Source of the DNA: Leptodactylus fallax
Taxonomy: Eukaryota > Chordata > Amphibia > Anura > Leptodactylidae
NCBI GenBank assembly: GCA_947044405.1
Contig: CAMRHE010000462.1
Span: forward strand, 1,151,001-1,215,000
Direction: 5' to 3'
DNA length: 64,000 nucleotides
The notes beneath the pieces were generated by a model. The model was given only the letters and a program-made list of their open reading frames with translations. It ran no database searches and was not told where the DNA came from. The first letter of the stretch is position 1. Each line of letters begins with the position of its first letter. Positions 16,230 through 41,536 of this stretch are shown here, in pieces. The translations under genes were made by a program, and so were the position numbers.

Positions 16230-16790
16230 AGATAACAGTCAAGAGACCAGATAGAAAATCATGATTTGTCACTCCACACATTTCCACTGTTCTAGAGTCC
16301 AAGGGCAGCTTTACACCACTCCATCTGACGCTTGGCATTGTGCTTGGTGATGTAGGGCTTGCATGCAGCTGCCATGGAAACCCGTGCCATGAAACTGGTG
16401 ATGTTAGAGCCAGAGGGGGTTTGAAAGTCTGTAGTGATTGAGTCAGCATAGTGTTGGCGACTTTTATGTACAATGTGTCTCAGCACTCTGCTCTGTAACT
16501 TTACGTGGGCTGTCACTTTCCAGTTTTCAATAATACCACTCACAGCTGATGGTGGAATATCTAGGAGGGAAGAAGTTTCATGAACTGACTTGTTACAATG
16601 GTGGCATCCTATTACAGTATCACACTGGAATTCAGTAAGCTCTTTAGAACAACCCATTCTTTCACAAATGTTGGTAAAGGGGGCTGCATGGCTAGGTGCT
16701 GGATTATCATACACCAGTGACCATGGGCCTGAATAAAACACCTAAATTTAAGGATCAAGAGTTTTGTCTCAATACTTTTTCTATATAGTG
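16230..16790 (-). pseudogene. 5' fragment of a Tc1-like transposon and transposase
   Basis: Read on the minus strand, the element starts at a TA (16791-16792) with CACTATATAGAAAAAG. A transposase begins at 16657 with MGCSKELTEF and continues through an HTH-like segment 'NKSVHETSSLLDIPPSAVSG' and 'SADSITTDFQT'-type sequence. It then reaches 'KRQMEWCKA', just before the usual first catalytic WSDES block. That block is present only as degraded sequence with an in-frame stop near 16265. Nothing after it (second Asp, Glu, 3' inverted repeat) is present. Family assignment is from the conserved N-terminal phrases of Tc1 transposases. It is a truncated, dead copy. Confidence 0.75.
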
Positions 16791-19264: not shown

Positions 19265-20278
19265 TTACATTTGCACATAGGACCCTTTGTTCGAAAGAAG
19301 CTTCTGAACTCTCTCGTCCATTGAATTTGTCAGTTTTTGGATGGTTTCTGCTTCAATTGTTTTCCATGAGGACAGAATACCCTCCCGGAGCTGTTGCTTA
19401 GATGTGAACTGCCTCCCGCCATCATAGACACTCCTTTTGATGATGCTCCAGAGGTTCTCAATGGGGTTGAGGTCAGGGGAGCATGGAGGCCACACCATAA
19501 GTTTGTCCCCTTTTATGCCCATAGCAGCCAGAGATGCAGATGTGTTATTTGAAGCATGAGACGGTGCATTATCATGCATGAAAATGATCTTTCTGCGGAA
19601 TGCATGGTTCTTCTTCTTGAACCATGGCAGGAAGTGCTGTTTGAGAAACTCCACATACATTATGGAGTTCATCTTTACCCCTTCAGGGATCCTAAAGGGG
19701 CCGACAATCTCTCTCCCCATGATTCCAGCCCAAAACATTACTCCACCTCCTCCTTGTTGGCGCCGTAGCCATGTTTGCATGGGGTGTCCATCAACAAGCC
19801 ATCCTCCACTCCATCCATCTGGACCATCGAGCGTTGCACGGCACTCCTCGGTGAACAAAACAGTTTTGAAGTCAGTCTTCATGTATTGTTTGGCCCACTG
19901 GAGTCGTTTCTGCTTGTGTGCAGTGGATAGAGGAGGTCGACAGGATGGCTTACGCACAGCTGCAAACCTCTGAAGGACCCTGCATCTTGTTGTTCGGGGG
20001 ACGTTGGAGGCACCAGCAGCTTCAAAAACTTGTCTGCTGCTATGACAAGGCATTTTTGAAGCTGCTCTTTTAACCTGACGTAATTGGCTGTTGGAAAGCG
20101 TCCTCAATTTTCCCTTATCAGCACGCACACGTGTGTGCTGTGAATCAGCTACATACTTCTTGATTGTGCGATGATCACGATGAAGTGTCTTGGCAATGTT
20201 GATTGTAGTCATGCCTTGACCTAAACACTCCACAATTTGTTGCTTCTCAGCAGCCGACACATCCTTTTTCTTTCCCAT
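19265..20278 (-). CDS. Tc1-like transposase, 337 aa, intact frame but altered catalytic triad
   Basis: The protein would bind the terminal repeats and cut and paste the element into TA sites in the nucleus. Residues about 8-45 form a first helix-turn-helix ('NIAKTLHRDHRTIKKYV'), with a second DNA-binding region to about 120. The catalytic domain follows: block 'VLFTEECRATLDG' at 140-152, glycine-rich 'QQGGGGVMFWAGI' at 174-186, 'FMHDNAPSHAS' with Asp236, and '[12 protein letters not shown]' with Glu274. Asp236 and Glu274 are separated by 37 residues. The first catalytic Asp would fall at residue 144, where the codon at 19847-19849 reads Glu (GAG). In this family the motif is normally T-D-E, and Asp-to-Glu at a DDE position usually abolishes catalysis, so this copy is probably inactive despite its open frame. 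Start ATG gives MGKKKD, a usual start for the group. Stop is TAA. Length is normal for Tc1 (about 340). Confidence 0.92.
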   Translation of the reverse strand: MGKKKDVSAAEKQQIVECLGQGMTTINIAKTLHRDHRTIKKYVADSQHTRVRADKGKLRTLSNSQLRQVKRAASKMPCHSSRQVFEAAGASNVPRTTRCRVLQRFAAVRKPSCRPPLSTAHKQKRLQWAKQYMKTDFKTVLFTEECRATLDGPDGWSGGWLVDGHPMQTWLRRQQGGGGVMFWAGIMGREIVGPFRIPEGVKMNSIMYVEFLKQHFLPWFKKKNHAFRRKIIFMHDNAPSHASNNTSASLAAMGIKGDKLMVWPPCSPDLNPIENLWSIIKRSVYDGGRQFTSKQQLREGILSSWKTIEAETIQKLTNSMDERVQKLLSNKGSYVQM

Positions 20279-35563: not shown

Positions 35564-36583
35564 ATGAGGTCAAAGGAACTGCCCAAGGAGCTCAGAGACA
35601 GAATTGTGGCAAGGCACAGATCTGGCCAAGGTTACAAAAGAATTTCTGCAGCGCTCAAGGTTCCTTAGAGCACAGTGGCCTCCATAATCCTTAAATGGAA
35701 GAAGTTTGGGATGACCAGAACTCTTCCTAGACCTGGCCGTCCAGCCAAACTGAGCAATCGCGGGAGAAGAGCCTTAGTGAGAGAGGTAAAGAAGAACCCA
35801 AAGATCACTGTGGCTGAGCTCCAGAGATGCAGTAGGGAGATGGGAGAAAGTTCCACAAAGTCAACTATCACTGCAGCCCTCCACCAGTCGGGGCTTTATG
35901 GCAGAGTGGCCTGAAGGAAGCCTCTCCTCAGTGCAAGACATATGAAAACCCGCATAGAGTTTGCCAAAAAACACATGAAAGACTCCCAGACTATGAGAAA
36001 TAAGATTCTCTGGTCTGATGAGACGAAGATTGAACTTTTTGGCATTTATTCTAAGCGGTATGTGTGGAGAAAACCAGGCACTGCTCATCACCTGCCCAAT
36101 ACAATCCCAACAGTGAAACATGGTGGTGGCAGCATCATGCTATGGGGGTGTTTTTCAGCTACAGGGACAAGACGACTGGTTGCAATTGAAGGAAAGATGA
36201 ATGTGGCCAAGTACAGAGATATCCTGGAAGAAAACCTCTTCCAGAGTGCTCTGGACCTCAGACTGGGCCGAAGGTTCACCTTCCAGCAAGACAATGACCC
36301 TAAGCACACAGCTAAAATAACAAAGGAGTGGCTTCGGAACAACTCTGTGACCGTTCTTGACTGGACCAGCCAGAGCCCTGACCTCAACCCAATTGAGCAT
36401 CTCTGGAGAGATCTGAAAATGTCTGTCCACCAACGTTCACCATCCAACCTGACGGATCTGGAGAGGATCTGCAAGGAAGAATGGCAGAGGATCCCCAAAT
36501 CCAGATGTGAAAAACTTGTTGCATCATTCCCAAGAAGACTCATGGCTGTGCTAGCTCAAAAGGGTGCTTCTACTCAATACTGA
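35564..36583 (+). pseudogene. Tc1 transposase pseudogene, 339 codons with two stops
   Basis: One continuous reading frame from ATG (MRSKELPKEL) to the TGA at 36581-36583, interrupted by TAG at 35666-35668 (codon 35) and TGA at 35912-35914 (codon 117). There is no frameshift. The TAG sits where the family has Lys ('VP-K-STVA'); the TGA sits where it has Arg, as expected for CpG decay. An HTH region is at 1-60 and a GRP-type linker 'RPGRPAKLSN' follows. Catalytic residues are all kept: 'LWSDETK' Asp152, '[11 protein letters not shown]' Asp243, '[11 protein letters not shown]' Glu278 (34 residues apart). A glycine box '[11 protein letters not shown]' is present. The length is normal, so this is a recently silenced gene. 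Confidence 0.93.
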
Positions 36584-40592: not shown

Positions 40593-41056
40593 TATGGCAT
40601 TACGTGACAGTATTTTTGATGTCTAGGGATACTAATAGAGTTGCCAGCAGCTAATCTGTTGCGATGTTCTGTGACAACAAAGTGGATGAGATTTACATAA
40701 TGTGGGTTTTCACTGTATTGCAAAGGTTGAAACCCATAAAAAAGACCTTGTGATTTCTCACAACAGACGTCTCAGCAGACATGTCCCATGTGGACCCAGC
40801 AGTAACTTTTCAATAAAATTGGCATAACTCAATAGTACTACAGAATATAAGAAACGTGTTATATATGTGCTATATACATCACAAAACAATTCTCTTTCTC
40901 TACTCATCAGGCTCTTTCCCTCCTCACTTCTAAACTAACATACTGAAATCTCTGCTGAATCCATCTTAGTCTCTCAAGATGGAGTGTCAGCTCACTGAAG
41001 TTATCAGATTACATGTGCCTACAGAAGTTTAGGAAAAAAGAGGGGGAGGAGGGAGG
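40593..41056. other. Single-copy sequence
   Basis: Nothing recognised. A G/A-rich tract (41037-41056) precedes the hammerhead element. Confidence 0.4.
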
Positions 41057-41063
41057 TGAATTT

Positions 41064-41217
41064 ATCACAAGGCATTATGGGAAAGGAGCTGGGAACTCAT
41101 GCGCCCTCTGTTGGATGTAACAGATCCTCAATTTGCTTTTGACTCACCGAGTCTTGAGACAGCAAAAGGGATTTTAGCCAAGCCAATTTCATTTATCTGC
41201 ATACAGCGCTGTTTCGG
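41064..41217. repeat. Direct repeat copy 1 (154 bp)
   Basis: Starts 'atcacaaggcattatggg' and ends 'cgctgtttcgg'. Confidence 0.95.
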
Positions 41218-41242
41218 GATTTTTGTCCCTCGTCAATGCAAA
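41196..41242 (-). ncRNA. Hammerhead ribozyme motif, core C3 substituted
   Basis: Read on the minus strand: stem I 5' strand TTTGCA; core TTGACGA (consensus CTGANGA, so C3 is T); stem II GGGA-CAAAAA-TCCC; GAAA; stem III, the perfect palindrome ACAGCGCTGT; then A as the cleavage-site base (41202); then TGCAGA, which closes stem I with five Watson-Crick pairs and one wobble. The short self-complementary stem III is the form seen in amphibian and Penelope-associated hammerheads, which act as dimers. The C3 substitution would be expected to reduce or abolish self-cleavage in this copy. Confidence 0.78.
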
Positions 41243-41374
41243 GCAAAATGAACTGGCTGGCTTTGTGAGAGGCAATGAGTGGGTTATGGACAGAGACATC
41301 TCTCCTTGGGGAGAGCACCAGTGAAGGTGTGTAGAGTTTTAAATTTCCTTTCGCCCTCTACTACGCATCTACAT

Positions 41375-41528
41375 ATCACAAGGCATTATGGGAAAGGAGC
41401 TGGGAGCTCATGCGCCCTCTGTTGGATGTAACAGATCCTCAATTTGCTTTTGACTCACCGAGTCTTGAGACAGCAAAAGGGATTTTAGCCAAGCCAATTT
41501 CATTTATCTGCATACAGTGCTGTTTCGG
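41375..41528. repeat. Direct repeat copy 2 (154 bp)
   Basis: Same as 41064-41217 apart from GAGCTC for GAACTC and CAGTGCT for CAGCGCT. Confidence 0.95.
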
Positions 41529-41536
41529 TGAATTTA

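What the first reader, a model, noticed from the sequence alone, without database searches (positions are those of the whole stretch)
41065..41528. Retrozyme-like insertion: hammerhead ribozyme at the boundary of 154-bp direct repeats
Seen directly: two 154-bp direct repeats with a 311-bp period, flanked as a block by TGAATTTA on both sides, with a hammerhead secondary structure on the minus strand (all three stems pair; GAAA and A9/G8/A6/G5 are kept). Known: Penelope-like pseudo-LTRs and metazoan retrozymes carry hammerheads with short stem III and are propagated as multimeric or circular RNA. Inferred: this is a 1.5-mer non-autonomous insertion of such an element, 5'-truncated inside the second hammerhead, in an amphibian-like genome.
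Basis: partly seen in the sequence, partly recalled or inferred. Interest (0 to 1): 0.85.

Follow-up and report, generated by a model that had tools for sequence, protein, structure and literature searches.

The report
Frog retrozyme bearing Penelope-type insertion marks
A tiny protein-free jumping gene with a self-cutting RNA motif is scattered through this frog-like genome, and the way its copies sit in the DNA points to the enzymes of another jumping gene, the Penelope-like elements, as its carrier.

Summary
Window 41065-41528 is an insertion of 1.5 units of a 311-bp repeat, flanked by TGAATTTA, with a type I hammerhead on the minus strand. The window copy has lost core base C3, but 70 of 71 distinct copies of that region keep it. 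It is a member, probably anuran, of the known metazoan non-LTR retrozymes.

What is new is how copies sit in the genome. Of 62 insertions examined, 25 are head-to-head doubles whose two ends both start inside the RNA unit. In 23 of the 25 one end starts at site A (about nt 140) and the other at site B (about nt 229); none is A/A or B/B. Exact target duplications of 9 bp or more, mostly 13-14 bp, flank 44 of 62. Penelope-like elements (PLEs) of the same genome follow the same rule: 9 of 9 head-to-head copies with both ends visible have one 'tailed' end and one shorter end. The best explanation is a PLE enzyme, so far proposed in print only as a candidate, copying retrozyme RNA from two start sites. 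Against it: no sequence is shared with any PLE tested, and nothing was tested at the bench.

The parts
41057..41064 (.). left target-site duplication TGAATTTA (10 bp GGTGAATTTA at 41055-41064 if the two ambiguous bases are counted)
41065..41528 (-). retrozyme insertion: about 1.5 units of 311 bp; RNA 5' end at about 41526-41528 (unit nt about 296), 3' end at 41065 (site A)
41063..41217 (-). repeat copy 1 (155 bp; the first two bases overlap the target duplication)
41374..41528 (-). repeat copy 2, 2 mismatches to copy 1
41177..41261 (-). complete type I hammerhead with bipartite stem I; C3 is U at 41236
41201..41202 (-). predicted self-cleavage site (UA|UGCAG), defines unit nt 311|1
   Evidence: inferred from the hammerhead rules on the sequence
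41488..41528 (-). partial second hammerhead, cut by the 5' end of the insertion
41063..41065 (-). reverse-transcription start site A as used here (RNA ...CCUUGUGAUA); TA shared with the target
41281..41288 (-). start site B (RNA ...CUGUCCAUAA, unit nt about 229), not used as an end in this copy but used in others
41529..41536 (.). right target-site duplication TGAATTTA

Best explanation
This is a non-LTR retrozyme: a 311-nt protein-free RNA unit with a type I hammerhead, spread as RNA. Proposed cycle: multimeric minus-strand RNA is cut by the (probably dimeric) hammerhead and closed into circles (recalled and from PMC7229834; not shown here). A PLE-type protein, acting as a pair, nicks the two target strands about 13 bp apart, preferring TA^GACA. 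One 3' end primes on the RNA at site A, the other at site B 89 nt further 3'. Each cDNA runs 5'-ward round the RNA, often more than one turn, and where both succeed their ends are joined, giving a head-to-head insertion with one A end and one B end inside a 13-bp duplication. The window copy is an A-end insertion without the second arm.
For: Shown: two 3'-end sites. Of 37 single insertions 27 end at A, 9 at B, 1 elsewhere; of 25 head-to-head insertions 23 are A/B, 2 A/other, none A/A or B/B. For the 23, independent choice at the singles' rate would give this with probability 1.6e-10 (the 2 A/other left out). Exact duplications of 9 bp or more flank 44 of 62 (23 of 25 doubles, 21 of 37 singles), against 0 of 2,435 mismatched pairings, so doubles are single events. 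The two arms end at different places (more than 20 nt apart in 21 of 25), against snap-back. Passes agree at 13 diagnostic sites: 727/743 comparisons within an arm, 419/426 between arms of one insertion, 61.6% between insertions, so both arms copy the same variant. Base after the duplication at the A-priming nick: G in 28 of 39; G in 28 of 44 over all ends tested, p 4.5e-10. PLE of the same genome: thousands of candidates; 9 of 9 head-to-head copies with both ends visible have one tailed end B' and one shorter end; GACA sits 10-17 nt beyond B' more often than further out (7 of 304 against 7 of 1,406 positions, p 0.006). Print: PLE protein PAc cuts and extends both strands and starts internally at two sites matching the 'tail' (PMC11167929, main text read); the 31-bp tail is optional at one of the inverted pLTRs (PMC3846280, passages).
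Against: No sequence similarity between the retrozyme and the PLE stretches compared: best 14 nt, E 0.19. The shared target word is weak: the motif score near PLE ends beats the genome (p 0.018) but not far flank of the same copies (p 0.25). The A-B distance is 89 nt against about 38 in PLE-1. In PAc, start sites did not differ between strands (PMC11167929). Of the 9 PLE doubles, the shorter end is at A' in 7, 20 nt short of it in one (C308) and about 90 nt short in one (L086). 18 of 62 retrozyme insertions lack a duplication of 9 bp or more. No LINE of this genome was examined as a control. Nothing about circles, expression or cleavage was tested.
Confidence: 0.68

Rival explanations
1. A LINE moves the retrozyme by ordinary target-primed reverse transcription; the doubles are LINE twin priming, and 13-14 bp duplications are usual for LINEs.
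For: Duplication length and 5' truncation fit LINEs as well (recalled). PMC7229834 names LINEs beside PLEs as possible carriers.
Against: In LINE twin priming the second start is at a variable place (recalled); here both ends start at fixed sites, one of each in 23 of 25 doubles. Same-genome PLEs show this arrangement. LINEs themselves were not examined here.
Confidence: 0.17
2. The template is a linear multimeric transcript, not a circle. (A rival to one step only; it can hold together with the PLE reading.)
For: A linear uncut multimer also lets copies run past the cleavage site and keeps passes alike. The PAc study found uncut RNA to be the dominant substrate and mutants of the hammerhead still inserted (PMC11167929).
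Against: Retrozyme circles are abundant in axolotl and invertebrates (PMC7229834). Here 16 of 25 shorter arms of doubles, which the queries did not select for this, cross the cleavage site and 0 of 25 stop within 3 nt of it; this speaks against a cut linear monomer, not against a multimer. The higher figures over all blocks (78 of 88 crossing, 2 of 88 ending there) are inflated because both queries span the site.
Confidence: 0.4
3. The doubles are not one event: two nearby insertions, a later inversion, or snap-back of the cDNA.
For: Inverted repeats are prone to such events in general (recalled); PMC3846280 proposes self-priming for PLE inverted repeats.
Against: One duplication encloses 23 of 25 doubles; arm junctions are not mirror-symmetric in 21 of 25; A/B pairing has no reason under two random insertions.
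Confidence: 0.04
4. A tandem satellite amplified by recombination, with the hammerhead a relic.
For: Tandem 311-bp period; amphibian hammerhead repeats were first called satellites (PMC7229834).
Against: Copies are dispersed over many contigs as short insertions with target duplications and fixed ends.
Confidence: 0.02

Closest known systems
Axolotl and newt non-LTR retrozymes (331/353-nt units, HHR_Amex1/2; newt satellite 2) (PMC7229834, parts 1-4 of 6 of the text read)
   Same: unit of about 300 bp in short tandems, type I hammerhead with very short stem III and a palindromic tetraloop, low GC (46% here), no protein coding (longest stop-free run 75 aa in a tripled unit)
   Different: 311-nt unit of other sequence; host apparently anuran; start sites, doubles and target word were not described in the text read
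Penelope-like elements, e.g. PAc of Anolis (PMC11167929) and Pen families of Adineta (PMC3846280)
   Same: internal start at two sites, tail at one of two inverted ends, duplications of several to about 17 bp, hammerhead
   Different: PLEs encode RT and GIY-YIG endonuclease; the retrozyme encodes nothing and shares no sequence with the PLEs compared
Plant LTR retrozymes (PMC4918200, listing only)
   Same: hammerhead, non-autonomous, multimeric insertions
   Different: type III hammerhead, LTRs, 4-bp duplications (as described in PMC7229834 and PMC7761336)
HH9 hammerhead of amniotes (Rfam RF02275)
   Same: best covariance match of the retrozyme hammerhead
   Different: recalled as a single-copy intronic motif, not a mobile element; match below the gathering score

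Membership tests
metazoan non-LTR retrozyme | type I hammerhead with intact core in the family | tested here: met
   71 distinct copies: C3 70/71, U4 70/71, G5 71/71, A6 70/71, G8 and A9 71/71, G12 66/71; 97.8% of stem cells paired, one pair (36-92) with changes on both sides in 11 of 62 sequences, one likely event. Window copy itself lacks C3
metazoan non-LTR retrozyme | unit of about 170-400 bp in dimers to multimers | tested here: met
   311 bp; arms from 47 to 1,783 bp
metazoan non-LTR retrozyme | no coding, GC below 50% | tested here: met
   GC 46%, longest stop-free run 75 aa in a tripled unit
metazoan non-LTR retrozyme | no LTR, primer-binding site or polypurine tract | not tested
   no separate search made; ends are internal sites A/B, not LTR ends
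metazoan non-LTR retrozyme | target duplications longer than 4 bp when present | tested here: met
   44 of 62 have 9 bp or more; null 0 of 2,435
metazoan non-LTR retrozyme | self-cleavage and circular RNA in tissue | not testable with these tools
   no RNA data
moved by a Penelope-like element | two internal start sites, one of each at the ends of head-to-head insertions, as in PLEs | tested here: met
   retrozyme 23 of 25 A/B; PLE-1 9 of 9 one B' and one shorter end, 7 of them exactly at A'
moved by a Penelope-like element | duplication length like the host's PLEs | tested here: met
   retrozyme mostly 13-14; PLE-1 repeats, microhomology with the element end included: 17, 17, 14, 13 (17 with one mismatch), 14 with 2 mismatches, 13, 10, 9 and 7 bp in 9 copies
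moved by a Penelope-like element | same target word | tested here: inconclusive
   GACA at 10-17 nt from PLE B' ends p 0.006; AGACA 7 of 39 near, 1 of 33 far; motif score not above far flank (p 0.25)
moved by a Penelope-like element | shared cis sequence with a PLE | tested here: not met
   best match 14 nt, E 0.19-0.25, in 12 PLE loci
Penelope-like element itself | encodes RT and GIY-YIG endonuclease | tested here: not met
   no ORF

The most novel reading that the evidence does not exclude
Animal retrozymes are obligate parasites of PLEs, and their copies reveal a two-start, two-strand integration: a paired PLE enzyme nicks TA^GACA on one strand and a weaker site 13 bp away on the other; the strong nick always primes at A and the weak nick at B of the same small RNA, so that a circle is read from two points at once. 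The A/B asymmetry would mean that the two subunits hold different parts of one RNA.
Probability: 0.5. Interest if true: 0.76.

Novelty: new member of a known kind. Interest (0 to 1): 0.57.

Why it matters
Retrozymes spread without any protein of their own, and which enzyme moves the animal ones is open: PMC7229834 (parts 1-4 read) and PMC7761336 (passages) call PLEs candidates on grounds of co-occurrence, hammerheads and tandem layout. The searches listed no paper with insertion-site evidence. If the signature reported here holds, the question becomes testable with one purified PLE protein and one short RNA, and thousands of natural insertions become a record of where and how a PLE enzyme starts on each DNA strand.

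Tried and rejected
Rfam on the window: nothing for a hammerhead. A 91-bp query for a structure-neutral sample found nothing because its words are too common; a 212-bp query replaced it. PF26215 is not in the library. Sequence homology between retrozyme and PLE: none. A conserved 7-bp stem enclosing site A in both elements was seen by eye but not tested and may be chance (note). L088-family PLE start sites: the search did not complete. L089-family search showed a 288-bp repeat with sharp ends, not an A/B pattern.

Sampling limits: the 62 insertions are the 40 scored places (39 fetched plus the window) and 22 of the 30 loci (8 were repeats of earlier ones and dropped); both queries span the cleavage site and favour longer, window-like copies, so proportions of long or crossing arms are inflated. 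A/A or B/B doubles would have been found as readily as A/B. PLE doubles: 11 head-to-head loci were seen; L080 and L087 were left out of the count of 9 because one end lies outside the fetched stretch (L080's visible end is short of A', L087's is at A'); a further partial case (C245) was not looked at.

The odds of the PLE reading were set after that.

Full report
Observation. The window holds two direct repeats of 155 bp (2 mismatches) 311 bp apart at 41063-41217 and 41374-41528, bounded by TGAATTTA. The minus strand of about 41177-41261 folds as a type I hammerhead. I number the RNA unit from the predicted cleavage site, so that RNA position p = 41513 minus the window coordinate for 41202-41512.

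The hammerhead. In 71 distinct copies of this region C3 is C in 70 and T only in the window copy; G5, G8 and A9 are invariant, A6 is 70 with one gap, G12 is 66 of 71. On 62 of these, aligned afresh, 97.8% of stem cells are standard pairs, against 12-42% when partners are slid; one pair shows a change on both sides in 11 sequences. Those 11 also share other linked changes, one of which breaks a neighbouring pair, so this is probably one event in a subfamily and weak as covariation. Shuffles gave as many pairs with two-sided change (485 of 500) while paired cells and the covariation score exceeded every shuffle. Rfam did not find the window copy; HH9 matched L013 and L042 below its gathering score and no hammerhead was reported in the other 10 of 12 loci. 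Stem III is three pairs around GCGC, which as a dimer makes a 10-bp palindrome in A-type copies; the axolotl hammerheads are described as working as dimers (PMC7229834).

The family in the genome. G000 is 2.5 Gb. A search with the insertion put 1,804 candidates in its first look and scored 40; a 212-bp query 1,040 and 40. I examined 62 independent insertions: all 40 and 22 new ones. Copies are dispersed. Relatives of a PLE protein from this genome that carry an organism name are anuran in 14 of 16 cases; this makes a frog host likely, not proven.

Where copies begin and end. RNA 3' ends fall at two places: A (about nt 131-147) and B (about nt 212-236). Singles: 27 A, 9 B, 1 at nt 172. Head-to-head doubles: 23 A/B, 2 A/other (L015 nt 184, L031 nt 89), no A/A, no B/B. 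In the 22 loci of the shorter query alone, 8 are doubles and all 8 are A/B. Exact duplications of 9 bp or more flank 44 of 62, 25 of them 13 or 14 bp; pairing flanks of different loci gave none among 2,435. 18 of 62 have none that long. The 5' ends of arms vary, and those of the two arms of a double lie more than 20 nt apart on the unit in 21 of 25, which does not fit snap-back copying.

What the template was. Arms longer than one unit exist (56 of 88 blocks, 12 longer than two), but both queries favour them and span the cleavage site. In the 25 shorter arms of doubles, which were not selected for this, 16 cross the cleavage site, 7 exceed 311 nt and none stops within 3 nt of it. A cut linear monomer is therefore not the usual template; a circle or an uncut multimer is. 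Units of one insertion agree at 13 diagnostic sites in 727 of 743 comparisons within an arm and 419 of 426 between arms, against 61.6% between insertions; mean difference is 1.8% within an arm, 1.5% between arms and 3.6% between insertions.

The target. At the nick that primed A the next base is G in 28 of 39, at the nick that primed B in 10 of 28 (Fisher p 0.006); in 5 singles primed at B it is G in none. The word after the A-priming nick is approximately TA^GACAG. So the two strands appear to be treated differently: the better nick goes with A.

The PLEs of the same genome. GIY-YIG matches: 112 from 150 scored of 647 candidates. The commonest family seen (here PLE-1) has 3' ends at two places about 38 nt apart, A' (...CTTCCAC) and B' (...ATACTACTA). 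Nine head-to-head copies have both ends visible. Each has one B' end; the other end is at A' in 7, 20 nt short of it in C308 and about 90 nt short in L086; L084's B' arm has an internal deletion. Repeats across the insertion, element microhomology included, are 7 to 17 bp. In 38 unique flanks of B' ends GACA begins 10-17 nt out 7 times in 304 positions against 7 in 1,406 further out (p 0.006); a motif score trained on the retrozyme is higher than genome background (p 0.018) but not than the far flank (p 0.25), and of seven words tried AGACA stood out most (7 of 39 near, 1 of 33 far).

Reading. The retrozyme and the PLEs share an unusual insertion architecture. For PLEs it is on record that a tail of 31 bp is optional at one of the inverted pLTRs (PMC3846280, passages) and that a PLE protein cuts and extends both strands and starts at two internal sites that bound the tail (PMC11167929, main text). 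The simplest account is that a PLE protein inserts the retrozyme. This is inference: no shared sequence was found, which PLE is the partner is unknown, no LINE control was run, and the PAc study saw no strand difference in start sites, unlike the A/B order here.

Known and new. The element is a new member of a known kind. The pairing of A and B ends in a retrozyme, the strand polarity, and the match to same-genome PLEs were not in the parts of the papers I read, and the searches listed no title or abstract on them; subscription papers are not covered.

Noticed in passing
window 19265-20278 (-): Open 337-aa Tc1/mariner-type transposase (DDE_3, E 1.2e-13); further DDE_3 ORF at 35942-36583 (+) and a Sleeping Beauty-type HTH fragment at 16292-16741 (-).
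   Followed up: no
L089 1152-1440 and 4427-4714: A 790-aa PLE-like ORF is bracketed by a 288-bp repeat in inverted orientation; the repeat has sharp ends (query 288-575) genome-wide and recurs as inverted pairs on five other contigs (C188, C273, C408, C428, C840). A PLE inside terminal inverted repeats would be unusual.
   Followed up: partly
L088 654-3299 (+): Open 882-aa frame with a GIY-YIG domain, a third PLE type in this genome.
   Followed up: no
L009 1749-1868 and similar junctions: Head-to-head retrozymes form long hairpins that score as miRNA families below gathering thresholds (MIR9408, mir-5615 in L009; MIR2863 in L049): a source of false miRNA calls.
   Followed up: no
window 41101-41114 and 41412-41425: The unit carries GCGCCCTCTGTTGG, which resembles the CTCF site as I recall it; not tested against any motif library.
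   Followed up: no
PLE-1 B' ends, L108-L147: Some PLE-1 copies continue as TCAACTTG beyond the usual B' end, so B' is a small cluster of starts.
   Followed up: partly
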